From Nanoarchaeota archaeon (GTDB lineage Archaea; EX4484-52; LFW-46): a stretch of 38,271 nucleotides of DNA. The notes beneath the pieces are model-generated. The model worked only from the letters and a program-made list of their open reading frames with translations. It made no database searches and was not told the DNA's origin. This document shows, piece by piece, positions 132 to 23,102 of the stretch; the first letter of the stretch is position 1; each line of letters begins with the position of its first letter. Made by a program: the position numbers and the translations under genes. The DNA lies in the NCBI GenBank assembly GCA_018897155.1, contig JAHILE010000023.1, forward strand, positions 1 to 38,271. Direction: 5' to 3'.

Positions 132-150
132 ATAGTATCTCGCGATACTC

Positions 151-3379: not shown

Positions 3380-3401
3380 ACGGGTGTGAAATGGTGGTCT
3401 T

Positions 3402-4460: not shown

Positions 4461-4497
4461 TAATTGGGTATTTTAACCCAATGCATAATATGATGGT

Positions 4498-4556: not shown

Positions 4557-4581
4557 CCAAGTTAGTGGGGAATGATTGAAA

Positions 4582-4878
4582 ATGAGTTTTGAAATAGCAG
4601 TTATCGGAGACAACGATTTTACCCTCGGCTTTAGGCTTGCTGGGATAAAAAAATCGTTCGACATCAAAAAGATGCCGATAAAGGAAGCGGTTGCTGATAA
4701 AAGCATAGGCATAATTATATTGAATGATGTTGATGTGCGCGCCCTTCCCACCCATATTCAGGATAGCGTACGCAATTCAGTATCGCCGGTTGCTGTTGTA
4801 ATATCAGATGACGGCGGCGCGGAAGAAAATTTGCGCAAGCTGATAAAGAAGTCGATTGGAATTGATTTGAGGAAGTAA
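4582..4878 (+). CDS. atpF: A-type ATP synthase subunit F
   Basis: A 98-residue protein with the subunit F pattern: IAVIGDNDFTLGFRLAGI at the N-terminus, a central IGIIILNDVDV strand and a basic end ENLRKLIKKSIGID. This subunit sits on the central rotor stalk. Position after C fits the H-I-K-E-C-F-A-B-D archaeal order. ATG 4582 gives the normal family start MSFEIAVIGD; GGGGAATGAT just upstream is a plausible ribosome binding site. In the standard order atpA would follow directly; here it lies 2.7 kb away. Confidence 0.9.
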   Translation: MSFEIAVIGDNDFTLGFRLAGIKKSFDIKKMPIKEAVADKSIGIIILNDVDVRALPTHIQDSVRNSVSPVAVVISDDGGAEENLRKLIKKSIGIDLRK

Positions 4879-4885
4879 TGCGGTT

Positions 4886-5058
4886 TCTCTTTTTCTTTTC
4901 AAAAAAGAAAAAGAGACAAATCATGACACTTCGTGTCAAGCTTTTGAATCCTATGACGATTGTCAATGGTTCAAAATCCGGGTAGAGAATAAGAAAAAAG
5001 CGGCATTTTCGGGCCCGAAAGAGACCGAAAAGCTTGAAAATTCGCAAGAATTTTCAAG
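4886..5058. repeat. Hairpin cluster at the break in the ATP synthase operon
   Basis: Between atpF and mntA there are four perfect inverted repeats: a 14-bp pyrimidine/purine stem at 4886-4916 (loop CAA), a 6-bp stem at 4924-4938, a 14-nt palindrome around GGGCCC at 5007-5020, and an 11-bp stem with a GCAA (GNRA-type) loop at 5033-5058. A pyrimidine/purine stem of the same kind recurs inside the tRNA-Ile intron. The first stem, just after the atpF stop, could end transcription. The density of palindromes also marks this as an insertion-prone junction. Confidence 0.7.
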
Positions 5059-5085
5059 ATTCGCTTCGTGAAGCCGCAAAAGATA

Positions 5086-5095
5086 TTATTTATAG
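5086..5095 (+). promoter_or_regulatory. TATA-like box upstream of mntA
   Basis: TTATTTATAG lies about 38 nt before the mntA ATG, after the hairpin cluster. It suggests the TA pair and the following genes have their own promoter, separate from the atpH operon. Confidence 0.5.
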
Positions 5096-5128
5096 ATTAG
5101 GTAATTCAATATAATCGGTGTGTTTGAT

Positions 5129-5422
5129 ATGAAAACGCTTGAAGAGATAAAAAAGATTCTGGCAGTCCATAAAGAAGAATTGCGCGAGAAATTCAAAGTC
5201 CTCGAAATCGGCGTTTTTGGCTCTTACGCTAAAGGAGAGCAGAAAAAACAAAGCGATTTGGATATTTTAGTCGAGTTTTATGAGCCTGTCGGGCTTTTCC
5301 GGTTTATCGAGCTTGAGGAGCATCTTGAAAAACTGCTCAATGCAAAAATTGATTTGGTATCAAAAAAAGCATTGAAGCCGCATATAGGGGAACATATATT
5401 AAAAGAGGTTGTATATGCGTGA
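5129..5422 (+). CDS. mntA: MntA-type minimal nucleotidyltransferase antitoxin
   Basis: A 97-residue protein of the minimal nucleotidyltransferase family. The active-site signature GS-x10-D-x-D is visible as [20 protein letters not shown] (Gly31, Ser32, Asp43, Asp45). In characterised HepT/MntA pairs this enzyme AMPylates and silences the HEPN ribonuclease encoded beside it. Its last codons overlap hepT by 8 nt, the usual arrangement. ATG 5129 follows GGTGTG at 5117-5122; an in-frame GTG at 5120 is less likely. It is the first gene of the block that interrupts the ATP synthase operon. Confidence 0.9.
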
Positions 5423-5768
5423 ACAAGATAGAGATTTTCGGGATTATGTAGAAGATATTTTGAATTCGGTAATCGAAATAGAGCAATTTATCGGCGATAT
5501 GGAATTTGAGGCTTTTGCAGAAGACAAGAAAACAATAAACGCAGTCATAAGAAGTATTGAAGTAATCGGCGAGGCAGCCAAAAAAATTCCAGAGCAGATA
5601 AAAGAAAAATATCCTGAAATTCCTTGGCGAAAAATGGCTGGAATGCGCGACAAGATGATACACGAGTATTTTGGCGTAGATATTGAAAGTTTATGGATTA
5701 CTGCAACAGAAGATATTCCTGCGATTAAGCCGCTGGTTCAGAAGATGTTGAAGAATTTGGAGAAATAA
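5415..5768 (+). CDS. hepT: HepT-like HEPN ribonuclease toxin
   Basis: A 117-residue all-helical HEPN protein (DUF86 type). The RNase motif R-x4-H-x-Y is present as RDKMIHEY (Arg78, His83, Tyr85), and [15 protein letters not shown] is typical of the family. It is expected to cleave RNA and to be controlled by the overlapping mntA. The start ATG 5415 has GAGGTTG directly upstream, inside mntA. All expected motif residues are intact, so the pair could be active. Confidence 0.9.
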
Positions 5769-5824
5769 TAACTAAAGCGCGTATCCTGTGAAAGAGAAGT
5801 TACGCAAGTGGATTACGTGATTTT

Positions 5825-6391
5825 ATGGATAAACTTGTAATTGATGATTCATTCATAAGTAAGTGGCACCCGAAATATGATGAATCAGAAGATGATGAAA
5901 AAGAATATTGCGATCTCGTTGCCAAAGTTTCAGAGGAATTATCTAAAAGCGATACCTTATCCGAAGAAGTATTCATAGGTATATTGAACTGGAAATCACC
6001 GCGCGTAAAAGGTAAAATACTAGATGATTTTAACTATTATGCAAAAGGCATTAAACAAGCTATAAACGCACCAGAAAATCAAAAAATAGAAATTTTAGAT
6101 GATTTGTATGGGATTGGTATTCCTGTAGCATCAACAATATTGCACATTATCTATCCAAAAATATATCCTATTGTGGACTTTAGAACAGTTACCGTTTTTA
6201 AATGGTCGGGGTATTTTAATAAAAAAATGCATTTTTATCGTAACACTAATAAAGGATATGATGTTTTTCGCGCTACAATAAGAGACATCTCTAATCAAAA
6301 TCCTAACTGGAATTTGCGCCAAATTGATAGAGCATTGTTCGCATACCATAAAACGAATGCTCATTTATTCGGACGAGAAAGTAGTTGTTAA
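5825..6391 (+). CDS. HhH-GPD-like protein of unknown function
   Basis: A 188-residue protein. Residues about 90-120 read LDDLYGIGIPVASTILHIIYPKIYPIVDFRTV, a helix-hairpin-helix (G-I-G-x-x-x-A-S) followed by a V-D-x-R segment as in HhH-GPD DNA glycosylases. The Lys used by bifunctional glycosylase/lyases is absent (GIGIPVAS), so if it acts on DNA it would be monofunctional or catalytically altered. GTGAT stands 3 nt before ATG 5825. Base composition is more A/T-rich than the atp genes, in keeping with an acquired accessory gene. The fold call is fair; the function is not known. Confidence 0.55.
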   Translation: MDKLVIDDSFISKWHPKYDESEDDEKEYCDLVAKVSEELSKSDTLSEEVFIGILNWKSPRVKGKILDDFNYYAKGIKQAINAPENQKIEILDDLYGIGIPVASTILHIIYPKIYPIVDFRTVTVFKWSGYFNKKMHFYRNTNKGYDVFRATIRDISNQNPNWNLRQIDRALFAYHKTNAHLFGRESSC

Positions 6392-6423
6392 CTATCAAAA
6401 TGGTTTAATTGTTTGTGATAAAT

Positions 6424-7038
6424 ATGCATTCAGGATATGTTGTTGGTGGAATTGTTCTAATACTTTTTGAGACGATCGTATTAGGAACATTTGGGATTTT
6501 CGGCGTATTTGGCATTATTCTTATATTGGGAGGATTAATAGGCGACTCCGAAGAAACAAATCAATTAAAACAATTAAGAGAAGAACTAAAATCATTAAAA
6601 CATCCTTTAAAATCGTCGAAAACTTCTGATAGACAAGAACAATCTGTAAAGGAAGAATATGTTGAAGAAGAAAATTCTTCAATCATGAATCAGATTGGTT
6701 TAGATCGACAATTCTTTATTTCTTTGAAGAAAGTTTTGTTTGTGGTGGTTATTGTAGTGATTTTGGGAGTGATATTCAGTTTGTTTCCATCCACAAGCGT
6801 GAATGAAACAAAGGAGTATGGAAGCGGGCCTTCGACATCTTCTATTGAAACATTATCAACGAGATGTGCGACAGTAAAAGTAACATGTAATGAAATACTT
6901 GGGAATTATGCAAGTCTTAAATTGCGTGAAGATGACTATACAAGACAAGGGATGAAAGCAGATTATGATAAATTAATAAGAGGTTATGAAGACGATTTAT
7001 TTCCAAAATGTAAAGAACAATTGAGTGGATGTAATTAA
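6424..7038 (+). CDS. Predicted membrane protein with two transmembrane regions
   Basis: A 204-residue protein I do not recognise. The N-terminal 45 residues are a Gly/Ile/Phe-rich hydrophobic hairpin (VVGGIVLILFETIVLGTFGIFGVFGIILILGGLIG), then about 60 charged residues likely forming a coiled coil, then a second membrane segment (VLFVVVIVVILGVIFSLF) and an outer Cys-containing domain (RCATVKVTCNE ... FPKCKEQLSGC) with four Cys that could form disulfides. GTGAT at 6415-6419 precedes ATG 6424. It lies in the A/T-rich block between atpF and atpA, possibly co-transcribed with its neighbours. Confidence 0.6.
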   Translation: MHSGYVVGGIVLILFETIVLGTFGIFGVFGIILILGGLIGDSEETNQLKQLREELKSLKHPLKSSKTSDRQEQSVKEEYVEEENSSIMNQIGLDRQFFISLKKVLFVVVIVVILGVIFSLFPSTSVNETKEYGSGPSTSSIETLSTRCATVKVTCNEILGNYASLKLREDDYTRQGMKADYDKLIRGYEDDLFPKCKEQLSGCN

Positions 7039-7136
7039 TAAAATGGCGCGTCTATTGAATTTGGTTAGTGGAAGAGGTAGAAACATTGAAAAAATCATCT
7101 TGCAGAAATAAAACATTCTAAACGCAGGTAGTGGAT

Positions 7137-7538
7137 ATGCAGACAAAAATATTTGAAATAGGCGATCTGAAGAAAGGGGATAGTGTGACTTGGAATTATA
7201 AATTTTTTCAAATAAACATCACCGAAGAAAATGTGTCGTTCTTTCCGCCATTAAAAGAAGAATTCAAAATACGGCTAAAATTTCCAAAAGGTAAAGCAAC
7301 AAATGTAAATGGAAAGGAATACGTGGATGGCACTTTTTTGACCAGAGTTGTCAATGACCAACATAATAGATTTGGAAAAGGTACTGTGAATGCAATTTGC
7401 GCTATTTGGGCAGATAGTAGAACTAAAGATGGACTTCTTATCGCATGGCTAAAGGAGCATGGTTTGAAGGCGGGAGATAAAGTAAAAATAACAATATTGA
7501 ATAATAACTTATATTTATTAGAGACTTATTTGATTTAA
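7137..7538 (+). CDS. Hypothetical protein, small beta-rich
   Basis: A 133-residue protein I cannot assign. It is predicted mostly beta (KIRLKFPKGKATNVNGKEYVDGTFLTRVV) with a C-terminal stretch DGLLIAWLKEHGLKAGDKVKITILNNNLYLLE. That ending resembles the L-x-x-GD-x-V-x-I finishing strand of AbrB/B3-like DNA-binding barrels, but the match is too short to rely on. The start ATG 7137 has GGTAGTGGAT just upstream. Last gene before atpA, which starts 19 nt after its stop. Confidence 0.5.
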   Translation: MQTKIFEIGDLKKGDSVTWNYKFFQINITEENVSFFPPLKEEFKIRLKFPKGKATNVNGKEYVDGTFLTRVVNDQHNRFGKGTVNAICAIWADSRTKDGLLIAWLKEHGLKAGDKVKITILNNNLYLLETYLI

Positions 7539-7556
7539 ATGATTACGGTGTTAAAA

Positions 7557-9374
7557 ATGCCAAAAAAAACAGAAGTTAAAGAAGAAAAATCAAGCTTAAA
7601 AGCGTCAAATACAACTGCAACAGCTGCTGCCGGTAAAAGCAAAGGTATGGGCGAAATCTATCGTATAGCAGGCCCTGTTGTAGTTGCAACAGGAATCGCT
7701 GCAAGGATGTATGACGTCGTGCGCGTCGGAAACGAGCGCATAATGGGTGAAATCATCCAGATAAACGGAGATCGCGCAACAATTCAGGTTTACGAAGACA
7801 CAAGCGGAATAACGCCGGGCGAGCCGGTTGAGACAACCGGAAAATCACTTTCTGTTGAGCTAGGTCCCGGTCTTCTTACTTCAATTTACGACGGAATACA
7901 GCGGCCTCTTGAAGTCTTGCAGGACAAGATGGGGGATTTTATCAAGCGAGGCGTTGATGCGCCGGGCCTTGATCATGCGAAAAAATGGGACTTTAAAGCA
8001 ACTGCAAAAAAAGGCGATGAAGTGAAATTCGGCGATGTCATCGGAACAGTTGAAGAGACAGAAGGATTTACGCATAGGATAATGGTTCCAAAGGGCGTGT
8101 CAGGAAAAATCAAGGAAATCAAAAGCGGAAAATACACAATTGAAGAAGCAATCGCGATTCTTGATTCCGGCGCGAAAATCGCAATGCTCCAGAAATGGCC
8201 CATCAGAGTTCCAAGAGCTGTCAAAGAAAAACACATGCCTTTTGCGCCTCTTGTTACAGGACAGCGCGTTTTTGACGGCTTGTTCCCTCTTGCAAAAGGA
8301 GGCACTGCGGCAATTCCCGGGCCTTTTGGCGCAGGAAAAACAGTGTCTCAGCAGCAGCTTGCAAAATGGTCTGACGCAGATATCATAGTTTATGTCGGAT
8401 GCGGAGAGCGAGGAAATGAAATGACTGAAGTTCTTACAGAATTTCCGCACTTAACCGACCCAAAGACTGGAAGACCGCTGATGAATAGAACTGTCTTAAT
8501 CGCAAACACATCAAATATGCCTGTGGCTGCGCGAGAAGCATCCGTATATACTGGGGTCACAATCGCAGAATACTACCGAGACATGGGCTATTCTGTCGCA
8601 CTGATGGCCGACTCAACTTCCAGATGGGCGGAAGCTATGCGAGAAATCTCATCCCGCCTTGAGGAAATGCCCGGAGAAGAAGGCTATCCTGCATATTTGT
8701 CAACACGGCTTGCGGAATTCTACGAGAGGGCTGGAGTTGTGACACCTTTAGGCGTAAAGACTCAGGGGTCTGTCACAATCATTGGCGCAGTTTCACCTCC
8801 TGGAGGAGACTTTTCAGAACCGGTAACTCAAAACACGCTTCGAGTAACAAAATGTTTCTGGGCGCTTGATGCAAAGCTTGCGCAAAGAAGGCACTTTCCG
8901 TCAATAAACTGGATAACTTCTTATAGTTTATATCTTGAAAGCCTTGAGCCGTGGTTCGCTAAAAACGTTGCTCCTGACTGGAATGAATTAATCGCTCGCG
9001 TAATGAAAATCTTGCAGGAAGAGGATAAGCTCCAGGAAATTGTGCAATTGGTAGGAAGCGATGCATTGCCGGATAGGGAGCAATTGACTCTTGAAGTCGC
9101 AAGAATGATTCGGGAATTTTTCCTGCAGCAGAACGCGTTCCATGACGTTGACACATTCTGCCCGCTTGACAAATCTTATCTTCTTTTGAAGACGATTCTG
9201 CACTACAACGACATTGCAAAATCAACGCTTGAGTCCGGAATTCCTCTTTCATTGATTCTTGCGACAAAGGCAAAGGACAGCATTTCGAATGTCAAGTTTG
9301 AGAAGGATTACAAGAAACTCCTTGCAGACATAACAAAGCAGATGGATTCGGAGTTTAAGGGATTGAAGGCTTAG
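7557..9374 (+). CDS. atpA: A-type ATP synthase catalytic subunit A
   Basis: The catalytic subunit, 605 residues from ATG 7557. Visible features are the N-terminal barrel [15 protein letters not shown], the bulge domain, the P-loop GPFGAGKT (about residues 255-262), [29 protein letters not shown] and the [12 protein letters not shown] segment. No intein is present. A 30-residue low-complexity Lys/Ala/Thr-rich extension precedes the normal family N-terminus. GGTGTT upstream of ATG 7557 supports that longer form. ATG 7647, at the conserved [10 protein letters not shown], has AAAGGT upstream and would give a standard-length protein. It is separated from atpH-F by the inserted block, and no atpB or atpD follows it. 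Confidence 0.95.
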
Positions 9375-10628: not shown

Positions 10629-10758
10629 ATGTATAAATGGCGAATGGTTTTTATATTCTTTAATCTCTCTCTCTCTGTTTCAGGAGATAAGTTATTTTTC
10701 AGTTTGGATTCTCGCGCCTTCAACCCATTCACCGCCGCGCCCGAAACAGCGCGCCTCA

Positions 10759-10849
10759 TTTTCAGTTTGGGTTCAAACTGAAAAGATAGAAATTGCCGAT
10801 TCGCGTAAGTGAAAAAATTGCGCGTAGCGCAATTTTAGGCAATTTCTAT
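10759..10849. repeat. TTTTCAGTTTG hairpin plus nested hairpin (repeat copy 1)
   Basis: Within a 309-nt gene-free gap (10629-10937). An 11-bp stem TTTTCAGTTTG/CAAACTGAAAA (10759-10784, loop GGTT) is followed by a nested structure: outer 12-bp arms ATAGAAATTGCC (10786-10797) and GGCAATTTCTAT (10838-10849), inner 10-bp stem AAAATTGCGC/GCGCAATTTT (10814-10836). The same CAGTTTG stem with the adjoining TTTCTATC/GAATCGGC segment recurs in inverted orientation at 13107-13153. A further TTTTCAGTTTGG start occurs near 10693 and near 38141. The rest of the gap holds the Bro-N gene promoter. Confidence 0.8.
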
Positions 10850-12837: not shown

Positions 12838-12950
12838 AAAATCCGTTCGTTGCGCTTATGCGCAACTCTCAGCTTTTCAAGCTTCGCTTGAAAATCCGTT
12901 CGCGACGCCTTAGGAACCATTATGCGCGTCGCTATCGGCTTGCCAACCCA
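12838..12950 (+). repeat. Two tandem copies of the ATCCGTTCG/CGGCTT palindromic repeat
   Basis: Unit 1 (12838-12880): AAAAATCCGTTCG, a stem GTTGCGC/GCGCAAC (12849-12864), then CTCAGCTTTTC. A linking hairpin TTTTCAAG/CTTGAAAA (about 12874-12894) leads into unit 2 (12892-12950): AAAATCCGTTC, stem GCGACGC (12902-12908) with GCGTCGC (12926-12932) around the same TTAGGAACCAT loop as the copy at 4498-4556, then ATCGGCTT. It lies just downstream of the tRNA-Met gene within the 709-nt gap 12801-13509, whose other contents are two tRNAs, another repeat and the purP promoter. Confidence 0.75.
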
Positions 12951-12974
12951 AAGCGGTTGGTGTATGGTTGTCAA

Positions 12975-13083: not shown

Positions 13084-13153
13084 TATAGAAATTGCTTATT
13101 CGTTTGCGTGAATCGGCACTTTCTATCTTTTCAGTTTGAAATCAAACTGAAAA
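13084..13153. repeat. TTTTCAGTTTG hairpin repeat (copy 2, inverted relative to 10759)
   Basis: The stem TTTTCAGTTTG/CAAACTGAAAA at 13128-13153 (loop AAAT) is preceded by GAATCGGCACTTTCTATC, which is the reverse-complement counterpart of the sequence beside the copy at 10759-10849. The left part (ATATAGAAATTGC) can pair loosely with GCACTTTCTAT and also supplies the likely TATA box of the tRNA-Met gene. The two copies bracket the Bro-N, RimK-like and tRNA-Met genes in opposite orientation. Confidence 0.75.
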
Positions 13154-13183
13154 TGCGTACTGAAGACTCTAAATATTTGTTAA

Positions 13184-13370
13184 TGGTCGAGGGGAGATTT
13201 TCGCCAGCTCTAGGTAATTCCGCCCTCGGCTTTAGCCGAGGTCGGTTTTTCTTTCTTCTTTACCCAGATTTGTTTCTTCTTTCTTTTTTAAAGAAAGAAG
13301 AAAAACTGGATTTGAACTCCCGACCCCCACGTTATCAGCGTGGTGCTCTAACCAGCTGAGCCACCCGACC
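13184..13370 (-). tRNA. tRNA-Ile(GAT) interrupted by a T-loop intron
   Basis: The 5' exon (13311-13370) runs from acceptor GGTCGGG through D-arm GCTC/GAGC, anticodon stem CCACG/CGTGG with loop CTGATAA (anticodon GAT), variable GGGTC, T-stem GGGAG and the first six T-loop bases TTCAAA. The 3' exon (13184-13197) supplies T60, T-stem CTCCC, acceptor CTCGACC and discriminator A. Joined, they give a 74-nt cloverleaf with all acceptor pairs formed (one G:U). CCA is not encoded. A TATA-like CATTTATAAAACT on the minus strand (13401-13413) lies about 37 nt upstream. Confidence 0.88.
13198..13310 (-). other. 113-nt archaeal tRNA intron at position 59/60 with BHB motif
   Basis: The exon-intron junctions fold as bulge-helix-bulge. 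The T-stem GGGAG/CTCCC is the outer helix. The central helix is TTCA with CGAA (three pairs plus an A-C mismatch). There are two 3-nt bulges, both AAT, and the inner helix is CCAG with CTGG. Cutting after the second bulge base on each side restores the seven-base T-loop TTCAAAT. Inside the intron are a long pyrimidine/purine hairpin (14-bp stem, loop TTT, about 13272-13303) and a palindromic stem CCTCGGCT/AGCCGAGG (about 13223-13240), both similar to repeats elsewhere in the window. Confidence 0.85.
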
Positions 13371-14820: not shown

Positions 14821-16818
14821 ATGGCGCCCAGTTCTCGCATAAAAACCGTCCAAACCATCTGCCCATACTGCGGATGCGGCTGCAAGCTCAACTACGTCGT
14901 TCAGGCAGGTAAAATCGTAAAGGCAGAGCCTATAAAAGACGACCCTGCAAGCCAGGGCAGGCCGTGCATAAAAGGCCTTACTTCTTTTGAGCCATTGACA
15001 GTCGAGCGCCTGAAATACCCGATGATGCGTCGCCGAAAAGACGGTCCGCTGCGCAAAACAACATGGGCTGCTGCATTCAAATATATAAAGGAAAAGACAA
15101 AAAATCTCAAAAGCAGAGATATTCTTTTCACAGGCTCCGGCGAATACACAAACGAAGACAATTACATTATGCAGAAATTCGCGCGTGTGGTTTTTAAAAC
15201 AAACAACATCGACTGCTGTGCAAGGCTTTGCCACGCTTCAACTGTTAAGGCGATGCAGGGCACATACGGCATCGGGGCAATGTCTTCATTCATGGATGAT
15301 GTGCTTGGTGCAGACGTCATTCTTGCTGTTGGAACAAATCCGGCGCATAACTATCCTGTTTTTTTCAACAGGATTCTTGATGCAAAGAAAAAAGGCGCTA
15401 AATTAATAACCGTTCATGCAGTTCCTAACGCCACTTCAAAATTCAGCGATATCCACATAAATGTGCCGTACGAATCGCTTACCGCGTTTATTGCAGGGCT
15501 TCTTAATGCAGTTTCTATAAAGAGCCAAAGCAAAATTGATGGATTTTTTGGATGCGAAGCAGATAAAAAAGCCGAGAACGAGCGAAGCAAAGTGACAGGA
15601 TTCGAAGACATGAAAAAAAGCATAAGCTATCTTACTCATAATTATCTTTCAAAGCGTTCTGGCATCGATATGAATTTATTTAATCGCGCCGTTCAAATGA
15701 TTTCAGAATCAAAAGATTTTGTGGCTCTTCACGGAATGGGGCTTACACAGCATGCGAACGGCACGCAAAATGTCACCGCGCTTCTTAATCTCTGTACGTT
15801 AAAAAACGGAAAAACAATTCCTATGCGCGGAAAATGCAATGTTCAGGGTGCTGGAGACATGGGCTGCTGCCCGAATTGGGCGCCGTTTGGCGGCAGCAGA
15901 AGCATGGCAAAAGAAGTTTGGGGCATTGATATAGATCAAAAAGAAGGGCTGAAAATAACTGAAGGGCTTGAAAACAATCCTGTTCGCGCTGCATACATTA
16001 TGGGCATGAATCCGGCGCAGTCAATGCCGAATTTGAACGAGGTCCATACTCAGCTGAAGTCAATGTTTGTTATTTATCAGCACCACCACCCGTCTGAGAC
16101 AATGAAGTTCGCTGATGTGGTTCTTCCAAGCGCGATGCTGCCTGAAAAAGACGGTACTGTAACGAATGCAGAGCGGCGCGTCCGGCGCGTAAGAAAAGCC
16201 ATAGAATCCCCTGGGAAAAAACAGGACTGGGAAATTATTTGCGGGCTTGCAAAAGAATTCGGCTACAGTAAGCAGTTCGGCTATAAATCAGCAGATGATA
16301 TTTTTGGCGAAATCATTCGCGCAGTTCCGGAATACGCCGGCTTGACATGGAAAGGTGTATCTGAGAAAGACAATTGTTTTGCTGACAAGGAGGAGCGATT
16401 TAAGAAATTCGTTCCGCTTGAAAAAATTGTGCAGGTTGAGAGCCCGAGAACAAGCGAGTATTCATTCACACTTACAACTACGAGATTGCAATATCATTTC
16501 TGCACAGGAGAAGCAACACGAAGAAGCAAGACTATGATGAAGATGCAGCCAAAGCCGGTGTGCAAGATGAATGAATCCGACGCAAAAAAACTTGGCATAA
16601 AAACAGGCGACATAATGCTGATAAAATCTGTCGCAGGTGAAATCAAGATCGAGGCAGAAGCTGACGCAACCGTGCCTTCAGGCATGCTTGTTGCGCCATA
16701 TCATTTTGAAAGCGTTCTCATAAACAAGGTAATCCCTTCGCACAGGCACCTTGATGAAATTACGCAGACGCCGAATTACAAGGCGATAAAGGTGAATGTT
16801 GAAAAAATCGGTAAATAA
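14821..16818 (+). CDS. fdhA: Formate-dehydrogenase-like molybdopterin oxidoreductase, catalytic subunit
   Basis: A 665-residue protein of the Mo/W-bisPGD family. A [4Fe-4S] site lies at the N-terminus (Cys14, Cys17, Cys21, Cys49: CPYCGCGC ... GRPCIKG). The metal ligand region NNIDCCARLCHAST has Cys137 where selenocysteine or Cys binds Mo/W in formate dehydrogenases, followed by the catalytic-type His138. The C-terminal domain carries the molydopterin-binding barrel (DAKKLGIKTGDIMLIKSVAGEI). No signal peptide is seen, so it is cytoplasmic. No fdhB, ferredoxin-type or hydrogenase partner is in the window, so its electron partner is unknown. It could oxidise formate, or make formate for the PurP enzyme next door. 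Confidence 0.82.
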   Translation: MAPSSRIKTVQTICPYCGCGCKLNYVVQAGKIVKAEPIKDDPASQGRPCIKGLTSFEPLTVERLKYPMMRRRKDGPLRKTTWAAAFKYIKEKTKNLKSRDILFTGSGEYTNEDNYIMQKFARVVFKTNNIDCCARLCHASTVKAMQGTYGIGAMSSFMDDVLGADVILAVGTNPAHNYPVFFNRILDAKKKGAKLITVHAVPNATSKFSDIHINVPYESLTAFIAGLLNAVSIKSQSKIDGFFGCEADKKAENERSKVTGFEDMKKSISYLTHNYLSKRSGIDMNLFNRAVQMISESKDFVALHGMGLTQHANGTQNVTALLNLCTLKNGKTIPMRGKCNVQGAGDMGCCPNWAPFGGSRSMAKEVWGIDIDQKEGLKITEGLENNPVRAAYIMGMNPAQSMPNLNEVHTQLKSMFVIYQHHHPSETMKFADVVLPSAMLPEKDGTVTNAERRVRRVRKAIESPGKKQDWEIICGLAKEFGYSKQFGYKSADDIFGEIIRAVPEYAGLTWKGVSEKDNCFADKEERFKKFVPLEKIVQVESPRTSEYSFTLTTTRLQYHFCTGEATRRSKTMMKMQPKPVCKMNESDAKKLGIKTGDIMLIKSVAGEIKIEAEADATVPSGMLVAPYHFESVLINKVIPSHRHLDEITQTPNYKAIKVNVEKIGK

Positions 16819-16831
16819 AATACGTGATTCT

Positions 16832-18211
16832 ATGGGCGGCATATTTCGGGCATACGACATACGCGGGGTTTATCCCGGCGAGCTTAATGATGAAATCGCA
16901 TATAAAGTAGGCAGAGCCTATGCGGTTTTTATGAAAAAAGAGAATGGGATGGATGAGGCCGTAGTGTCTTGCGATTGCAGGCTTTCAAGCCCGGCTTTGA
17001 AGAGATTCCTGATTGCAGGGATTCGTGACGGAGGCATAAATGTTCTTGATGTTGGAGATGCGCCGGTTCCGGTCTTTTATTTCACAATTGCAAATCTCGG
17101 GAAAGCAGGCGGAATAATGGTTACCGGCTCCCATAATCCGAAAAATTATAACGGCTTGAAGCTTCAGAGAAAGGATGCAAAGCCGATTGTTGCAGAAACA
17201 GGAATATCGGAGATTGAGAAGCTTGCAAATGCAGGAAAATTCGAGAAAACATCAGGGAAAACAGTGCATAAAAAAATCGATATGAATCAGGCATATATTG
17301 ACTACGTATTCAAAAAAATATTCCTCAAGATTCCGCTGAAAATTGTTCTTGACACAGGAAACGGATCGTGCGCGAATATTCCTGAAAAAATATTTAGCAG
17401 TCTTGGATGTACCGTAGAGACTCTTTTTCCAACACCTGACGGCAATTTTCCGAATCATCAGCCTGATCCGCACGATGAGAATTCACTTGAAGCATTGAAA
17501 AAGCGCGTCATTGAAACAAATGCGGATATGGGTCTTGCGTTTGACGGCGACGGAGACCGAATCGGCCTTGTCGATGAAAAAGGCAATACAATCACAGGTG
17601 ATTTCATTTTGATGATGCTTGCGCGCCAGGCGCTTGAATCGCGCAAAGGAACAGTTGTGTTTGAGGTGAGGGCATCAAACACCCTGATTGAAGATGTGAA
17701 AAGCCGCAAAGGAGCACCGATTATCACGCGTGCAGGGCATAGCTATTTGCTTGATGAGATAATTGCGTCTAACGCAGTTTTTGGCGGCGAGATTACCGGG
17801 CATATGTACTTTCCGTATTGCTATTACAATTATGATGACGGCATTTTCGCAGGGCTCAAGCTTGCTGAAATTGTGTCCGAGCTCGCTGCAAAGCACATAA
17901 AATTGTCAGAATATGTTGCGGGACTTCCGAGAAACTTTTCGACGCCAGAAATATTCATAGAGTCAACTGATGACACTAAATTCAAGATTGTCGACGAATT
18001 GAAAAAATACCTTGAAAAGAATAAATACGATTTTCTTGGCATTGATGGCGCCCGCATAAACTTTAAGCATGGATGGGGACTGGCACGCGCATCAAATACA
18101 ACGCCGCATATCAAATGCAGATTTGAGGCGGATACAAAAGAGCATCTGGACGAGATTCTTGCAGAAGCCAAATCCATTTTGAAGAAGGTGGGTGTGGAGT
18201 TGAAGGTTTGA
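16832..18211 (+). CDS. manB: Phosphomannomutase/phosphoglucomutase
   Basis: A 459-residue alpha-D-phosphohexomutase. Domain 1 has the start FRAYDIRGVYPGELN and the phosphoserine loop TGSHNPKNYNG (catalytic Ser100). Domain 2 has the Mg2+ loop DGDGDRIG. Domain 3 has the sugar-specificity loop GEITGHMYF. The C-terminal domain has the phosphate-binding RASNTTP. It interconverts hexose 1- and 6-phosphates for sugar-nucleotide and glycan synthesis; mannose versus glucose preference cannot be read here. GTGAT at 16824-16828, 3 nt before ATG 16832, decides the start. It begins 13 nt after fdhA and is probably co-transcribed. Its last 126 nt are duplicated at 19290-19415. Confidence 0.93.
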   Translation: MGGIFRAYDIRGVYPGELNDEIAYKVGRAYAVFMKKENGMDEAVVSCDCRLSSPALKRFLIAGIRDGGINVLDVGDAPVPVFYFTIANLGKAGGIMVTGSHNPKNYNGLKLQRKDAKPIVAETGISEIEKLANAGKFEKTSGKTVHKKIDMNQAYIDYVFKKIFLKIPLKIVLDTGNGSCANIPEKIFSSLGCTVETLFPTPDGNFPNHQPDPHDENSLEALKKRVIETNADMGLAFDGDGDRIGLVDEKGNTITGDFILMMLARQALESRKGTVVFEVRASNTLIEDVKSRKGAPIITRAGHSYLLDEIIASNAVFGGEITGHMYFPYCYYNYDDGIFAGLKLAEIVSELAAKHIKLSEYVAGLPRNFSTPEIFIESTDDTKFKIVDELKKYLEKNKYDFLGIDGARINFKHGWGLARASNTTPHIKCRFEADTKEHLDEILAEAKSILKKVGVELKV

Positions 18212-18264
18212 TAAGGATTGCGATACGGACGGCCCAAATACCTAAAATATGGACAAACGATACA

Positions 18265-18285
18265 TTTAAAAAGATACAATTGTAT
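18265..18285 (+). promoter_or_regulatory. Promoter and palindromic operator of TA cassette 1
   Basis: A TATA-like TTTAAAAAG (18265-18273) is followed directly by the perfect 12-bp palindrome ATACAATTGTAT (18274-18285), which covers the expected start region 8 nt before ATG 18294. The gene behind it begins with a winged helix, so autoregulation is likely. The same ACAATTGT core appears at the promoter of cassette 2. Confidence 0.65.
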
Positions 18286-18293
18286 ATAAAAAT

Positions 18294-18905
18294 ATGCAAT
18301 TTAGAAACTTCGCCGAGAATCTTCTTGGCTCAAAGGTCAAGGTAAAACTGCTGAAGTACCTTATTTCCGAAGGCGCGATAACAAGCGAGCGCGAAATATC
18401 GCGGATTATTGGGGCATCTTCCGGAGCAGTGAATAGGACTCTCAAAGAATTTAGTGACCTTAATCTCATACGCTCGACAAGAATAGGCAATGTAACCGCT
18501 TGGCAATTGAATGAAAAAAGCTACGCGTACAGTTACATAACGAATTTTTTTAATAAGCTGAAAAGCCGCGAGGAGCCTATATCTGAACTTGGGCGAGATA
18601 TTTCTAAAGCTTTAGCTGATACTTCGGGCATAAAAAAGGCAATTTTATTCGGATCAGTAGCTGAGGGCCGGGAGTTGCCTGAGAGCGATATTGATTTATT
18701 TATTCTCATAGAAAATGAAAAAAGCCGCGGCGGCATACAATCTGCAATAGGGGCGCTAAACGAGCTTTGCCTGCAAAAATACGGAAATATTTTGAGTCTG
18801 TATGTGCTTACGCCAAATGAGGTGAAAGAACAAAAAAAATTCTATGAAAAAATACTGTTGAATGGAATCCGGGTGACGGACAATGAAAACGCGGCAAGTG
18901 GATAG
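18294..18905 (+). CDS. Winged-helix + nucleotidyltransferase protein (TA cassette 1)
   Basis: A 203-residue protein. Residues about 10-75 form a winged helix-turn-helix (KVKLLKYLISEGAITSEREISRIIGASSGAVNRTLKEFSDLNLI). Residues 115-140 carry the minimal nucleotidyltransferase signature GS-x10-D-x-D (Gly120, Ser121, Asp132, Asp134: GSVAEGRELPESDIDLF). It overlaps the HEPN gene by 23 nt. By analogy to MntA/HepT it would be an antitoxin that modifies the HEPN partner, with a built-in DNA-binding domain for its own promoter. That role is inferred; the domains are clear. Confidence 0.85.
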   Translation: MQFRNFAENLLGSKVKVKLLKYLISEGAITSEREISRIIGASSGAVNRTLKEFSDLNLIRSTRIGNVTAWQLNEKSYAYSYITNFFNKLKSREEPISELGRDISKALADTSGIKKAILFGSVAEGRELPESDIDLFILIENEKSRGGIQSAIGALNELCLQKYGNILSLYVLTPNEVKEQKKFYEKILLNGIRVTDNENAASG

Positions 18906-19281
18906 GTCAAAGGCAGGCTTTTACCTGCAAAAAGCAGAGGAATGCAAAAACTCAATGGAGCGGGCATTTGAATCTCATGAGTGGAACGCGTGCGTAATCA
19001 ATGCAATACATGCGGCAATATCATCTGCCGACGCGCTTTGCATTGCAAATCTCGGCGAAAGAAATGCCGGCGAGCGGCACGAAGATGCAGTGGTACTGTT
19101 CCATCGCATAGACTCGGGAAGCGAAGATATCAAGCGTAATATAAAGCATCTCTCGGAGCTTTTGAGCATAAAGACCGATGCAGAATACGGCGAGAGGCTG
19201 TTTTACGAAAAAGATGCAGAAAGCGCGCGAAAGCATGCTGAAAGATTATTTGTGTTTGTGAAAGGGATTGTGCAGAGATAA
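18883..19281 (+). CDS. HEPN-domain protein (TA cassette 1)
   Basis: A 132-residue helical protein of the HEPN class: YLQKAEECKNSMERAFESHEWNACVINAIHAAISSADALCIANLG is the typical first half, and ESARKHAERLFVFVKGIV the last helix. A canonical R-x4-6-H RNase motif is not clearly present; a possible relative is RHEDAVVLFHR. This could therefore be a HEPN that binds nucleotide or RNA rather than a proven RNase. The start ATG 18883 lies within the preceding gene. Eight bases after its stop the duplicated manB 3' end begins. Confidence 0.8.
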   Translation: MKTRQVDRSKAGFYLQKAEECKNSMERAFESHEWNACVINAIHAAISSADALCIANLGERNAGERHEDAVVLFHRIDSGSEDIKRNIKHLSELLSIKTDAEYGERLFYEKDAESARKHAERLFVFVKGIVQR

Positions 19282-19289
19282 ATGTGATT

Positions 19290-19415
19290 CGCGCATCAAA
19301 CACAACGCCGCATATCAAATGCAGATTTGAGGCGGATACAAAAGAGCATCTGGATGAAATTCTGGCAGAAGTGCGCGGGATTTTGAAGAAAGTTGGAGTG
19401 GAGTTGAAGGTTTAA
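19290..19415 (+). pseudogene. Duplicated 3' stub of manB
   Basis: 126 nt align without gaps to the end of manB (18086-18211). By eye about 110 of 126 bases match. Both encode RASNTTPHIKC ... KKVGVELKV plus stop, and differ at three adjoining or nearby residues (AKS versus VRG). Most other differences are synonymous, so the two copies diverged while both were functional coding sequences. No start codon or 5' part of the gene is present. The stub directly follows the HEPN stop codon and its own stop overlaps the stop of the convergent zincin gene. Confidence 0.92.
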
Positions 19416-20599
19416 TTCAATTTGTTTTTTCTTAAAAATAGAAAAAACGCGGCTAAAAAAATAATTGAAACTATTGTGTATGGATTGGTGGCCATTGTTT
19501 GGGTAACCAAACCTACTGATACTGAAGTTGTTTCTTTGTTTATTTCAAATATTAAAAATGCAATCAAAAGTATTGCTGAAACCACTGCAACCTGCGCGCT
19601 CTTTTTTTCTCGTTTATTGACTGGTTCGTATATTGTATTTACCATCTTTTCTAAATTATCTTCAACTTCTTGAATATTTGATTTCATTTCGACATTAGTA
19701 CTTGGCTTGTTTTTACGCATTTCGTTCTTATATATTTCAATGCCTTTTTCAGCTAAAGTTTCCAATTCATTCAACCTATTGTGTGAATCCGGATCTTTCA
19801 AAAGTTCATTTATTTTGGAGATTTTCTCTTTTTTGGATAAGTCGTAAGCACTCAAGGCTGCAAGTGCTCCTAATCGATACCCCCAAAGTGATTCGTATGA
19901 TCCTGTTTCTTCGTTTTTTACAGTATCTTTTAATTTAGCAATTCTTTTTTCATTATCGGGTATTAACACAGCAGTAAATAAAGCATTCATTTTTCCAAAC
20001 AGATCCGTTTTTCCTGTTTTTCGTTTTTCTACTTCCTTTAAATACTCATATACCCCAGTCTTTTTTAAATGATTTCGGCTTTTTGGAGGTCCATTATCAC
20101 GATATTGGTGAATGAGATTTACTACTTCTTCTTTTGTCTCATTTGTAAGCAATAATGTAGCAAAATCCGCAATCCCCTCTTGACCTCTTCTAAGCACAGG
20201 TTCTTTGGATGCATCGGCTTTTTCAAAATCATGGATTATTTCATGAACTGTTGTTCCTTTTATCGATTTATATGTCTCGTCCATTACCGATTTAACTTTT
20301 TTAACCGCGGCTTCGTATTTTTCTGGCGCCCTAATATCCTCAGGCATTTTTTTCAAGTAGGCTTCATTATCCAAGCACTTGACATATAACCCAACCTGAT
20401 CCTTTCTGAGAATTATTCTATTTTTATCGCGGTTGTATGCTCCTAACTCATCGTTAGCTAAATCATCAAGCCGAATTTTGGGTGGTTTATAGTTAGTAAT
20501 GCCGAGTTCTTTTGCAACCTCCGCATAGCAGTTATGAACTATTTCCGAAGCGATCTTTTTTTCTTTTCTTGATTTAAAGAAACCATCAAACAAAGCCAT
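19412..20599 (-). CDS. Predicted membrane-anchored zinc metallopeptidase
   Basis: A 395-residue protein. H119-E-I-I-H123 is a zincin active-site helix, and QEGIADFATLLL (Glu141) supplies a likely third ligand of gluzincin type. Residues 1-330 are soluble and two transmembrane segments end the protein (about 335-355 VAVVSAILLIAFLIF and 370-388 PYTIVSIIFLAAFFLFL). I do not recognise a named family. It sits between the two TA cassettes, with the manB stub on one side and the MFS stub on the other, and its stop codon lies in the manB stub. A TATA box CGTTTATATTTTT (20619-20631, used on the minus strand) is about 26 nt from the start. Confidence 0.7.
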   Translation of the reverse strand: MALFDGFFKSRKEKKIASEIVHNCYAEVAKELGITNYKPPKIRLDDLANDELGAYNRDKNRIILRKDQVGLYVKCLDNEAYLKKMPEDIRAPEKYEAAVKKVKSVMDETYKSIKGTTVHEIIHDFEKADASKEPVLRRGQEGIADFATLLLTNETKEEVVNLIHQYRDNGPPKSRNHLKKTGVYEYLKEVEKRKTGKTDLFGKMNALFTAVLIPDNEKRIAKLKDTVKNEETGSYESLWGYRLGALAALSAYDLSKKEKISKINELLKDPDSHNRLNELETLAEKGIEIYKNEMRKNKPSTNVEMKSNIQEVEDNLEKMVNTIYEPVNKREKKSAQVAVVSAILLIAFLIFEINKETTSVSVGLVTQTMATNPYTIVSIIFLAAFFLFLRKNKLN

Positions 20600-20642
20600 A
20601 TTATTTATTGGGTTGCTGCGTTTATATTTTTCGAAAATTGTT

Positions 20643-20820
20643 TTACTCCCCGACCATCCACCAGAAGCCCGCCATTACAAATCCAAGGACTAAAAACATC
20701 TCGCGCATGCCGAAAAACCCGATAAGCGCGGCTGCGGTAAGAGGCCCGATAAAATAAGCCACGCAAATGCTGCGAGAAATTGGATAAAATGAGTTCGTCA
20801 AAGCGATATTGGTTGAGTCA
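20643..20820 (-). pseudogene. Duplicated 3' stub of an MFS transporter gene
   Basis: The minus strand encodes, up to a stop at 20643, about 50 residues ending FIGPLTAAALIGFFGMREMFLVLGFVMAGFWWMVGE. The intact transporter at 21945-23102 ends FLGPLSAAAMISLFGMREMFLVLAIIMVGFWWMVRK; by eye about 26 of the last 39 residues match. Homology fades near NSFYPISRS, close to 20820, where the HEPN gene ends. No start codon of its own. It is the counterpart, on the other side of the zincin gene, of the manB stub. Confidence 0.88.
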
Positions 20821-21255
20821 TTAATTACGCTGCAATATCTTCTCAATTTCATTTACAAATACCTTTGCGTCATTCATTGCAAGAAATGCATCGTCTATTT
20901 CCGGTTTGTATTCCAATCCATACATAGTTTCATGCCGCTCGATTCGATGGATATTCAGAAAATTGAGGATATTCATAGGTATTTTGTTGGCGTATTTTTC
21001 TTTAAGATAAATAAATATTGCAAAATGGCTCTTTTCTTGAATCCCGTCTTTGTAGAGTAAAGCTCGTGAGGCATGAAACATCGCCATGTAAGCCTCAAGA
21101 ATAGCGAATTGGAAGAAATTTGCTTTAAGGGCCATTTCTCCCTGACTCAGCCTTTCCTTTGCAACATCCATGGATCTTTTGACTTTTTCCATATCCGGAG
21201 GAATCTTTCTCAAAAGACGATACTCGAAACAATCATCAACATTTCGCACATTCAT
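20821..21255 (-). CDS. HEPN-domain protein (TA cassette 2)
   Basis: A 144-residue helical HEPN protein. The pattern MDVAKERLSQGEMALKANFFQFAILEAYMAMFHASRALLYKDGIQEKSHFAIFIYLKEKY is characteristic of the COG1895-like group, followed by the basic segment NIHRIERHETMYG where RNase-type residues would lie. The start ATG (21255-21253) forms TGATG with the stop of the nucleotidyltransferase gene and has GTGAT 3 nt upstream, so the two are translated together. Its stop is at the edge of the MFS stub. Confidence 0.85.
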   Translation of the reverse strand: MNVRNVDDCFEYRLLRKIPPDMEKVKRSMDVAKERLSQGEMALKANFFQFAILEAYMAMFHASRALLYKDGIQEKSHFAIFIYLKEKYANKIPMNILNFLNIHRIERHETMYGLEYKPEIDDAFLAMNDAKVFVNEIEKILQRN

Positions 21256-21797
21256 CAAATCACGGGTTTTTCTCCATACACACAAATGCCATTGGCTATG
21301 ACCTCAAGGTAAAACGCTTTATCTGTTTTTGCCTTTTTATTCCAATTACTCCAGCCGAAAACGTGCAGTGATATATCTCTTCTGATTATCTCTTCGAATT
21401 TTTCTAAGTCCATATGTTTTTCTTTTCCAATTACCAGTAAATCCGCGTCGCTTTTTTCATCGTCTAATCCCTTTGCCATGGAGCCGAATAACACGATGGA
21501 TGAAACATTTGATGTATTTTCTGTTAAATGGAGTATTAATCCGGATTTTTGAAGCAGATTCACATTAAAAGCAATTTTCAGATGTTTAAAGAACACATTA
21601 TTAACATTGGCCTTAAAATATCTCAAGTTGGCACGTTTATCTTCTAGAATAAGCCCTTCTTTAATTAGAAAATCCGCGTATTTTTTTATCGCAAATGGGC
21701 TTAGGCCTGTTTTTTTTGCCAATTGCCTTAAATAGACTTCTTGATACGGGTGTTCTAAAAAAAAATGGAGTGTTTTAAAAAGCATTAAGTCTTGCAT
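21255..21797 (-). CDS. Helix-turn-helix + nucleotidyltransferase protein (TA cassette 2)
   Basis: A 180-residue protein with an N-terminal winged helix (VYLRQLAKKTGLSPFAIKKYADFLIKEGLI, residues about 21-50) and a minimal nucleotidyltransferase core with GS-x10-D-x-D (Gly105, Ser106, Asp117, Asp119: GSMAKGLDDEKSDADLLV). Same domain order as the cassette 1 protein, but sequence similarity by eye is limited to motifs, so the two cassettes are not recent copies of each other. Likely antitoxin of the overlapping HEPN gene. Confidence 0.87.
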   Translation of the reverse strand: MQDLMLFKTLHFFLEHPYQEVYLRQLAKKTGLSPFAIKKYADFLIKEGLILEDKRANLRYFKANVNNVFFKHLKIAFNVNLLQKSGLILHLTENTSNVSSIVLFGSMAKGLDDEKSDADLLVIGKEKHMDLEKFEEIIRRDISLHVFGWSNWNKKAKTDKAFYLEVIANGICVYGEKPVI

Positions 21798-21860
21798 ACG
21801 ATTGTTTTTATTTTTTAGTATTTATAAGCTTTTGTTTTTATATAAAAACAATTGTTTTTA
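21798..21860 (-). promoter_or_regulatory. Promoter and palindromic operators of TA cassette 2
   Basis: A minus-strand TATA-like CTTATAAATAC (21818-21828) is about 26 nt from ATG 21797. Upstream is the perfect 18-bp palindrome TAAAAACAATTGTTTTTA (21843-21860), overlapped by a second palindrome GTTTTTATATAAAAAC (21834-21849). Immediately before the start codon a near copy of the half-site (TAAAAACAATCGT, minus strand 21810-21798) occurs. The ACAATTGT core is shared with cassette 1. Confidence 0.65.
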
Positions 21861-21944
21861 TTATTTTATTAATCATCCAGATAACTGGCAGCAAAGTTAT
21901 GGATTATTCGTATGTGGGGCAAAAATACATATTTCATTCATCAT

Positions 21945-23102
21945 TTATTTCCTAACCATCCACCAGAAACCCACCATAATTATTGCAAGAACCAGAAACA
22001 TCTCGCGCATGCCGAAAAGCGAAATCATTGCAGCCGCGCTGAGGGGCCCGAGAAAATGAGCAATGCGTATTGATGTTTTGAATACTGACATGTTCTCGAT
22101 TATATTGCTTTTCTTTGAGTGCTTGTCAAGTTCCATCTCATTTAGCGGCTCTATTGCCGCAGCGCCCATGAAGGCCAAAAAGAAGAAAAGTATCATTGAG
22201 TTGATTGCGCCATAGTTTACATAAATCAAAAATGATGCAATCGTTATTGCAAAAAATCCGAGAGAGATGTATTTTTTTGAGCCTTCTTTTTCTGCGAGCC
22301 GGCCTATGGGGTATTCAAGCATGATGTACGGCACAATCATTATTGCAAATATTATTCCTATTTTGCCGAAATCAAAACCCAGGGACATTAATATAATTGG
22401 CAGGTACAGAAATGCGACAAAGCTCCAAAAATACAGGCCGAGGTTTGATACGAATATTTTTCTGAGTTTTATATCTGAAAAAAAAATAATTGCGTTTTTT
22501 ATGCTGTTTTCGGATTCTTTTCGTTTTATGGCGATGTCTCTTATACCCATACTTCCTGAAATGGCATATATTCCTAGGAAAAAAAGGGATGCGTAGGAAA
22601 AGACAGTTGTGTAGCTATATGACTTTGCTATTATGCCGCCGTTCAATATCCCCAAGAACATCCCTAAGTTCATGACGGTGAAATATTTCCCTTCTGAACT
22701 TCCTAGGTTTTTCTTTTTTGAACTGTTGTTAACAAGAATGCTTAATGCAGTTGTGCAAAGGCATACTGCTACTGCAAGAATTACCTGCACTAGCGCTAGA
22801 GCAATAGTGGAATTTATGAGTGTGTATGAAGCGAATACGAATGAGAATAGAATAAGGCCTATCTTGAGATTTTTGAGCACACCCCATTTTTCAAAGAACG
22901 TCATTATGTGAAAACTTATGAATATCGCGCTTAGCCCAAAAACAGCAGTTATCAGCCCAACTCCTTCAGGTCCGCCGTATATTTTTTCTGCAAAAATAGG
23001 GAAAATGGGTGTGGTTAGCGAAAATGTCATTGTGATAAGAAAGGCTATTATTGCAACTTCAGTTAGCTGCGAGAAATTCATGCGTATTTTTCCCCTGAAC
23101 AT
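21945..23102 (-). CDS. Major facilitator superfamily transporter
   Basis: A 385-residue integral membrane protein with about 11-12 hydrophobic segments. It starts FSQLTEVAIIAFLITMTFSLTTPIFPIFAEKIYGGPEGVGLITAVFGLSA, typical of the N-terminal MFS half, and has PYIMLEYPIGRLAEKEGSKKYISLGF at the equivalent of the conserved G-x-L-x-D/E-R/K-x-G loop of the second half. The substrate is unknown. ATG 23102 is chosen because a TATA box (minus strand, 23124-23135) lies 27 nt upstream. Its 3' end is echoed by the stub at 20643-20820. Confidence 0.85.
   Translation of the reverse strand: MFRGKIRMNFSQLTEVAIIAFLITMTFSLTTPIFPIFAEKIYGGPEGVGLITAVFGLSAIFISFHIMTFFEKWGVLKNLKIGLILFSFVFASYTLINSTIALALVQVILAVAVCLCTTALSILVNNSSKKKNLGSSEGKYFTVMNLGMFLGILNGGIIAKSYSYTTVFSYASLFFLGIYAISGSMGIRDIAIKRKESENSIKNAIIFFSDIKLRKIFVSNLGLYFWSFVAFLYLPIILMSLGFDFGKIGIIFAIMIVPYIMLEYPIGRLAEKEGSKKYISLGFFAITIASFLIYVNYGAINSMILFFFLAFMGAAAIEPLNEMELDKHSKKSNIIENMSVFKTSIRIAHFLGPLSAAAMISLFGMREMFLVLAIIMVGFWWMVRK

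What the first reader, a model, noticed from the sequence alone, without database searches (positions are those of the whole stretch)
18086..21990. Two TA cassettes, each followed by a 3'-end stub of the gene it sits behind
manB - [wHTH-NTase, HEPN] - manB 3' stub - zincin - MFS 3' stub - [HEPN, HTH-NTase] - MFS reads as a mirror-symmetric block. In both halves the HEPN stop codon is followed at once by a truncated copy of the 3' end of the full-length gene on the far side of the cassette. The cassettes are not recent copies of each other and the target genes are unrelated, so the same geometry arose twice. This suggests a recombination route in which HEPN/nucleotidyltransferase cassettes travel with, or insert at, the 3' ends of host genes and leave a stub behind. 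I know of no described system with this signature, though I cannot search.
Basis: partly seen in the sequence, partly recalled or inferred. Interest (0 to 1): 0.9.

Follow-up and report, generated by a model that had tools for sequence, protein, structure and literature searches.

The report
Toxin cassettes closed by gene-end stubs
In an uncultured archaeon, small toxin-antitoxin and defence gene cassettes sit directly behind ordinary genes and are closed by a leftover copy of that gene's last piece, a scar which shows that the cassettes were brought in by recombination with relatives; this suggests how such selfish modules can spread without any transposase of their own.

Summary
manB's last 127 nt recur after the first MNT-HEPN cassette (87%). 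The MFS gene's last ~120 nt recur after the second (76%). The sister genome G001 has manB, another gene, then MFS, with no cassette and no stub.

It is not local. In Aenigmatarchaeota (9 genomes, 4 families) I found about 20 inserts closed by 3'-end stubs, plus some with 5'-end stubs. Examples: gatD, a NosD-like gene (three inserts, three stubs), peptidase U32, ileS, and a four-copy array. Cargo is mostly MNT-HEPN, AbiE, PIN, DUF2283 pairs and DUF4143/DUF234 ATPases, so HEPN is not required. Orientation varies.

In 14 full/stub pairs, differences are mostly synonymous (101 versus 74; pN/pS 0.21; P about 1e-10 against a decaying in-situ duplicate). Homology stops at the stop codon in 13 of 14. 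The stubs are therefore alleles that diverged as functional genes in other lineages. Most likely cassettes enter by recombination anchored in the homologous gene end, with an illegitimate or secondary join inside the resident gene, leaving its old end behind.

Similar scars are known (restriction-modification genes; T6SS and CDI orphan arrays). As a general route for archaeal toxin-antitoxin modules it appears undescribed in the library searched. Which copy is native, and how DNA enters, remain open.

The parts
16796..18211 (+). Full-length phosphomannomutase/phosphoglucomutase gene (manB), the anchor gene of cassette 1
   Evidence: Pfam PGM_PMM I-IV; 83% identical in G001
18086..18212 (+). 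3' end of manB, the full-gene copy of the repeat
   Evidence: Direct repeat with 19290-19416, 127 nt, 87%
18294..18905 (+). Cassette 1: winged-HTH + minimal nucleotidyltransferase (MNT)
   Evidence: Pfam NTP_transf_2/Polbeta, weak HTH_24; PADLOC candidate PDC-M05A
18883..19281 (+). Cassette 1: HEPN protein
   Evidence: Pfam HEPN PF05168
19290..19416 (+). manB 3' stub, in frame, stop codon kept (TAA instead of TGA)
   Evidence: 9.3 synonymous versus 5.7 nonsynonymous differences from manB; homology ends at the stop codon
19412..20599 (-). Zincin-like gene (HEIIH motif) between the two stubs; different gene in G001
   Evidence: ORF; no Pfam/PADLOC family
20642..20764 (-). MFS 3' stub, in frame, stop codon kept
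   Evidence: Direct repeat with 21944-22066, 76%; 14.5 synonymous versus 15.5 nonsynonymous differences, pS 0.57, pN 0.17
20821..21285 (-). Cassette 2: HEPN protein
   Evidence: Pfam HEPN
21255..21797 (-). Cassette 2: HTH + minimal nucleotidyltransferase (MNT)
   Evidence: Pfam Polbeta/NTP_transf_2; PADLOC PDC-M05A
21944..22066 (-). 3' end of the full-length MFS gene, the full-gene copy of the repeat
21945..23102 (-). Full-length MFS transporter gene, the anchor gene of cassette 2
   Evidence: Pfam MFS_1; 3' part 71% identical in G001 up to the contig end

Best explanation
Each cassette came in from a related lineage by recombination anchored in the homologous end of a conserved gene. The incoming DNA carried a diverged copy of the gene end with the toxin-antitoxin cassette next to it. 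The homologous side paired with the resident gene. The cassette's other side was joined inside the resident gene end, by homology-facilitated illegitimate recombination (HFIR) or an equivalent. The product keeps one complete gene, then the cassette, then the displaced old gene end as a stub. Repeating this at the same gene builds gene-cassette-stub-cassette-stub arrays. The cassettes are passive passengers kept because they are addictive or protective. Shown: the scar, its recurrence, the cargo bias, the codon pattern, and cassette-free relatives. Inferred: which copy is native, the illegitimate join, how DNA enters the cell, and that cargo is kept for addiction or defence.
For: (1) Full and stub copies differ mainly at synonymous sites: 101 versus 74 over 14 pairs, pN/pS 0.21, P = 1.6e-10 against a neutral stub beside a constrained gene; 0 of 1500 simulations reach it even with strong transition bias. 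So the copies diverged as working genes in different lineages. (2) Homology ends 0-6 nt from the stop codon in 13 of 14, and the next 40 nt are 23-45% identical; flippase 5' stubs start about 4 nt before the ATG. Coding ends are the homologous anchor and the flanking DNA is not shared. (3) Recurrence with different anchors and cargo. (4) Cassette-free sisters: manB, beta-helix gene, MFS and gatD, 29 nt, transporter in G001. (5) The slot after manB differs in the close relatives G001, G025, G032 and G007. (6) In the G012 array, identity to the largest copy read (1737-2027) is 98, 96 and 90% for the three others; the decline fits outward ageing, although the complete gene lies off the contig. 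(7) The mechanism is the one proposed for T6SS immunity arrays (PMC5361080).
Against: No donor genome carrying the same gene-cassette junction was found. The sister-species comparison does not tell which copy is native. Several cassette ends lie only 3-56 nt from the stub, tighter than a random illegitimate join predicts. No ComEC competence gene was detected in 34 genomes, so the uptake route is unknown. HFIR is reported as rare where measured. Some stubs carry in-frame stops (U32, NosD stub 2), so part of the divergence came after insertion.
Confidence: 0.58

Rival explanations
1. Legitimate homologous recombination on both sides. Once a gene-cassette-stub unit exists, a circle [cassette + gene end], or a linear piece with gene end on both sides, inserts by a RadA crossover in the gene end. 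The repeats act as reusable addresses, and the reverse crossover removes the cassette cleanly.
For: It explains the compact units (3-56 nt between cassette and stub in several cases) and arrays on one anchor gene. It also fits homeologous divergence between the copies.
Against: The first unit still needs an illegitimate join. The same cassette-stub junction was not seen in two genomes; the one shared cassette (ileS, G000 and G001) has a stub in G001 only.
Confidence: 0.22
2. Insertion with long target duplication, as described for restriction-modification genes: the cassette inserts and about 60-200 nt of target are copied on both sides.
For: Same outward look: a defence or addiction gene pair bordered by a long direct repeat (PMC1643837; PMC4978471).
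Against: The copies should start identical and the stub should then decay neutrally. The excess of synonymous differences rejects this. The boundary at stop or start codons would be a coincidence.
Confidence: 0.08
3. Tandem duplication of the anchor gene followed by deletion, with the cassette inserted between the copies.
For: It produces two copies of a gene end.
Against: No duplicated manB or MFS in G001; only gene ends remain, mostly ending at the stop codon, in about 20 inserts; the codon pattern is against it.
Confidence: 0.03
4. A site-specific recombinase or transposon moves the cassettes and repairs the gene end on integration, as prophages do.
For: Integration at gene 3' ends with the end restored is common for integrative elements (general knowledge).
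Against: No integrase or transposase was recognised in the cassettes read. The anchors share no site (manB, MFS, gatD, NosD-like, ileS, U32, others). Repeats diverge to 76%. Orientation is not fixed. No viral relatives of the cassette-1 HEPN.
Confidence: 0.05
5. Assembly artefact of metagenome-assembled genomes.
For: All genomes with this pattern are draft assemblies.
Against: The two copies differ by 2-25%, so they were not collapsed; the pattern recurs in nine genomes, including a 310-kb contig (G003:C1, L220), and inside long contigs.
Confidence: 0.02

Closest known systems
Insertion with long target duplication of restriction-modification genes (Nobusato 2000; cited in PMC1643837, PMC4978471)
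   Same: Addiction or defence gene pairs flanked by a long direct repeat of target sequence; no transposase (recalled).
   Different: Here the copies are diverged coding alleles ending at stop or start codons, form arrays, and occur in archaea with many cargo families. The original paper was not read, only papers citing it.
T6SS effector-immunity arrays in Vibrio cholerae, explained by homology-facilitated illegitimate recombination (PMC5361080)
   Same: Sequential insertion anchored in a conserved gene, with the old 3' end pushed downstream as a remnant; arrays grow next to the anchor.
   Different: There the anchor gene is the toxin gene itself and its 3' part is replaced. Here the anchors are unrelated genes, many of them housekeeping, which stay intact, and the cargo is independent toxin-antitoxin or defence modules.
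Orphan cdiA-CT/cdiI and rhs modules (PMC3150448)
   Same: Strings of toxin/immunity modules, several carrying leftover fragments of the upstream gene without start signals.
   Different: Cargo and anchor are one gene system in CDI/Rhs; here they are unrelated.
Integron gene cassettes (general knowledge)
   Same: Compact cassettes in arrays, new ones expected next to the anchor.
   Different: No integrase recognised; each anchor gene supplies its own homologous sequence.
MNT-HEPN toxin-antitoxin modules (PMC2701414)
   Same: The cargo proteins belong to this widespread archaeal two-gene family, described as mobile.
   Different: The passages of that survey read here report mobility without a mechanism; the scar offers one.

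Membership tests
MNT-HEPN toxin-antitoxin module | Adjacent genes for a minimal nucleotidyltransferase and a HEPN protein | tested here: met
   Pfam hits above cut-off for both cassettes
MNT-HEPN toxin-antitoxin module | Toxicity of HEPN and neutralisation by MNT | not testable with these tools
   Needs expression assay
Insertion with long target duplication | Insert flanked by a long direct repeat of target sequence absent from the empty site | tested here: met
   Repeats flank the cassettes; G001 manB-MFS and gatD loci have neither cassette nor repeat
Insertion with long target duplication | The two copies descend from one target sequence duplicated at insertion | tested here: not met
   Synonymous-dominated divergence rejects neutral decay after an in-situ duplication
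Homology-facilitated illegitimate recombination | Homologous anchor on one side of the foreign DNA | tested here: met
   Coding end of the anchor gene is homologous, flanking DNA is not
Homology-facilitated illegitimate recombination | Non-homologous or microhomology join on the other side | tested here: inconclusive
   Cassette-stub junction seen, but the donor sequence at the junction is unknown
Integrase-mediated integration at gene 3' ends | Linked integrase and a shared or conserved attachment core | tested here: not met
   No integrase recognised in the cassettes read; anchors unrelated
Integron cassette array | attC sites and IntI | not tested
   No integrase among the genes read; attC was not searched for specifically

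The most novel reading that the evidence does not exclude
Gene ends act as reusable homologous addresses for a transposase-free cassette system: toxin-antitoxin and defence modules bordered by gene-end repeats enter, stack and leave by ordinary RadA recombination among relatives, so that conserved genes become platforms for defence arrays across this archaeal phylum and perhaps elsewhere.
Probability: 0.3. Interest if true: 0.87.

Novelty: new variant of a known kind. Interest (0 to 1): 0.74.

Why it matters
Toxin-antitoxin and small defence modules are known to be highly mobile, yet most carry no transposase, and how they move is an open question. The stub is a readable scar of the event. It lets one find insertions, orient them, compare donor and resident alleles and search for new cargo by the scar alone: in an unselected sample of the window's genome, every repeat-flanked insert kept carried toxin-antitoxin- or defence-like genes. 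It also gives a first concrete route for gene gain in DPANN archaea with small genomes.

Tried and rejected
Tandem duplication and target duplication: rejected by the codon test. HEPN/NTase specificity: rejected by AbiE and DUF4143/DUF234 cargo. Fixed orientation with HEPN next to the stub: rejected by gatD and the G012 array. Virus-borne cassette: no viral relatives. Natural competence through ComEC: no match in 34 genomes, so no support. Finding which copy is native from G001: inconclusive for manB, gatD and ileS. Comparison sets: 30 glycosyltransferase loci gave one or two unclear flanking repeats (L240, L245); the other 19 manB loci gave none of this kind; 29 Thermococcales-like HEPN loci gave one 5'-type case (L167) and short promoter-like repeats in L173/L179. 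The 3.3-kb loci are short, so these frequencies are rough: 4 of 40 HEPN loci pass the strict test there, whereas about 7 of 17 HEPN loci of the window's own genome do when longer stretches are read. Not counted as stubs: tandem paralogues in L139, L145, L146, L279, and the L10/L12 ribosomal repeat in L118. PDB sequence searches with the cassette-1 proteins gave no hits.
Full report
What is in the window. manB (16796-18211 +) is followed by a winged-HTH nucleotidyltransferase and a HEPN gene (18294-19281 +), then a 127-nt copy of manB's own 3' end (19290-19416, 87% identical). The zincin-like gene follows (19412-20599 -). Then comes a 3'-end copy of the MFS gene (20642-20764, 76%), a second HEPN/nucleotidyltransferase cassette (20821-21797 -) and the full-length MFS gene (21945-23102 -). 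The two cassettes are distant relatives only. Chance is excluded for both repeats (E about 1e-39 and 1e-18).

Where it comes from. The window is contig 23 of a 1.43-Mb draft genome. A same-order genome, G032, is titled Candidatus Aenigmatarchaeota, so this is a DPANN archaeon. The one genome of the same genus, G001, has manB, then a 695-aa beta-helix gene on the opposite strand, then the MFS gene, with no cassette and no stub. The slot after manB is different again in G025 (a DUF234-like ATPase 21 nt after the stop), G032 (a convergent HEPN/MNT pair) and G007 (an antiporter).

The pattern recurs. Self-comparison of HEPN loci in the window's genome and its relatives showed the same scar elsewhere. 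G000:C48: gatD 3' end, HEPN/MNT in the opposite orientation, gatD stub. G000:C19: a NosD-like gene, then MNT-HEPN, stub, MNT-HEPN, stub, DUF4143 ATPase, stub. G012:C82: four copies of one membrane-gene 3' end separated by MNT/HEPN, a DUF2283 pair and HEPN/MNT. G019:C63: peptidase U32 with a stub 12 nt after the HEPN stop, the window's geometry. G032:C142: a metallo-beta-lactamase-fold gene. G027:C62 and G001:C56 (ileS) are further cases. G029:C74 has a HEPN gene end repeated beyond a methyltransferase-like gene. A mirror version exists: 5'-end stubs of a flippase gene (G000:C4, C37, C5) start about 4 nt before the ATG. In L107 and L117 the repeat also includes 30-57 nt past the stop codon, so the stop boundary is a strong tendency, not a rule.

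Cargo is not only HEPN/nucleotidyltransferase. Stretches of the window's genome taken without regard to HEPN (about 380 kb) contained five inserts flanked by such repeats after tandem paralogues were set aside. They carry AbiEi/AbiEii, two DUF4143 ATPases, one DUF234 ATPase and one MNT pair. For two of them (L132, L135 at 6863-8374) the repeat could not be assigned to a gene end. Searching from the cargo side, DUF4143 loci in G019 and G023 and an AbiE locus on a 310-kb contig of G003 also have stubs. Glycosyltransferase loci, used for comparison, gave one or two unclear cases in 30.

The decisive test. If the stub were an in-situ duplicate (tandem duplication or target duplication), it would be free to decay and nonsynonymous changes would accumulate in it. 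In 14 full/stub pairs there are 101 synonymous and 74 nonsynonymous differences (pS 0.28, pN 0.059). Against a neutral stub beside a constrained gene this has P = 1.6e-10; no simulation of 1500 reaches it for transition bias up to 8. Two of the G012 pairs have 10 synonymous and no nonsynonymous change. The copies therefore diverged as working genes in different lineages and were brought together afterwards. Homology runs to the stop codon in 13 of 14 pairs and then drops to 23-45%, close to random. Coding ends were the shared, homologous part; the DNA beyond them was not shared. Pairs from one array are not fully independent, which the test ignores. Four G012 and NosD pairs alone give P about 1e-8; every one of the 14 pairs has pS above pN.

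Empty sites. In G001 gatD is followed after 29 nt by a DMT-family transporter; in G000 the same two genes are separated by the HEPN/MNT cassette, the gatD stub, a TIR-domain gene and a large restriction-modification-like gene. At ileS both genomes carry the same HEPN-MNT (84-89% identical in its core against about 79% along ileS), but only G001 has a stub and a further hypothetical gene. One reading is that the G001 lineage imported the cassette next to its own older ileS-hypothetical gene order; the identity profile along ileS shows no clear donor tract, so this stays a reading.

Mechanism. Best supported: recombination anchored in the homologous gene end, with the second join inside the resident gene end. 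This is what has been proposed for successive T6SS module insertion in Vibrio cholerae as homology-facilitated illegitimate recombination (PMC5361080), and the orphan CDI modules look alike (PMC3150448). The tight cassette ends make me keep open that, once formed, such units also spread by ordinary two-sided homologous recombination, with the stub as second arm. Which copy is native, and by which route DNA enters these cells, is not shown; the ComEC competence family was not found in 34 genomes.

Novelty. The outward signature is known from restriction-modification genes (insertion with long target duplication: PMC1643837, PMC4978471), but the allele test says the process here differs from a simple target duplication. 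Text searches found no account of this route for toxin-antitoxin modules in archaea; the library holds open-licence papers only, and the 2000 paper itself was not available.

Limits. Draft genomes; short loci for the comparison sets; several gene names by eye from translated sequence (manB neighbours, U32, gatD, ileS, flippase, TIR); the count of about 20 inserts in nine genomes is a hand count over. The relatives sample holds only one genome of the same genus.

Noticed in passing
L081 (G000:C19:17000-28341), 4075-8610: Three inserts in a row behind one NosD-like gene, each closed by a 3' stub ending at the stop codon: MNT-HEPN, MNT-HEPN, DUF4143 ATPase.
   Followed up: yes
L092 (G012:C82), 1-5456: Array of four copies of one membrane-gene 3' end separated by different toxin-antitoxin pairs; identity to the largest copy is 98, 96 and 90%.
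   Followed up: partly
L084, L088, L135 (G000:C4, C37, C5): Many 5'-end stubs of a flippase gene spread over short contigs, next to PIN, MNT-HEPN and ATPase genes; probably one large region broken by the repeats.
   Followed up: partly
L077 (G000:C48:35000-45000), 738-4426: A TIR-domain gene and a large restriction-modification-like gene lie beyond the gatD stub and are absent at the same place in G001.
   Followed up: partly
L089 (G001:C56) and L078 (G000:C55), behind ileS: HEPN-MNT shared by both species, more alike than the ileS gene beside it; the stub is present in G001 only.
   Followed up: partly
window 4497-4560, 12888-12951 and 10757-10816, 13096-13155: Dispersed intergenic repeats (83-87%), some also found in G001, plus short palindromes at 13128-13153, 13273-13303 and 36869-36902.
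   Followed up: no
L173 (G093:C1) 1412-1461/2797-2846 and L179 (G127:C34): About 50-nt promoter-like repeats (90% identical) around HEPN and VapBC-like genes in genomes of the G038 phylum (Thermococcales-like).
   Followed up: no
L220 (G003:C1), 2285-2362: The AbiEii reading frame runs into the stub of the neighbouring gene, so the stub supplies the last codons of that gene.
   Followed up: no
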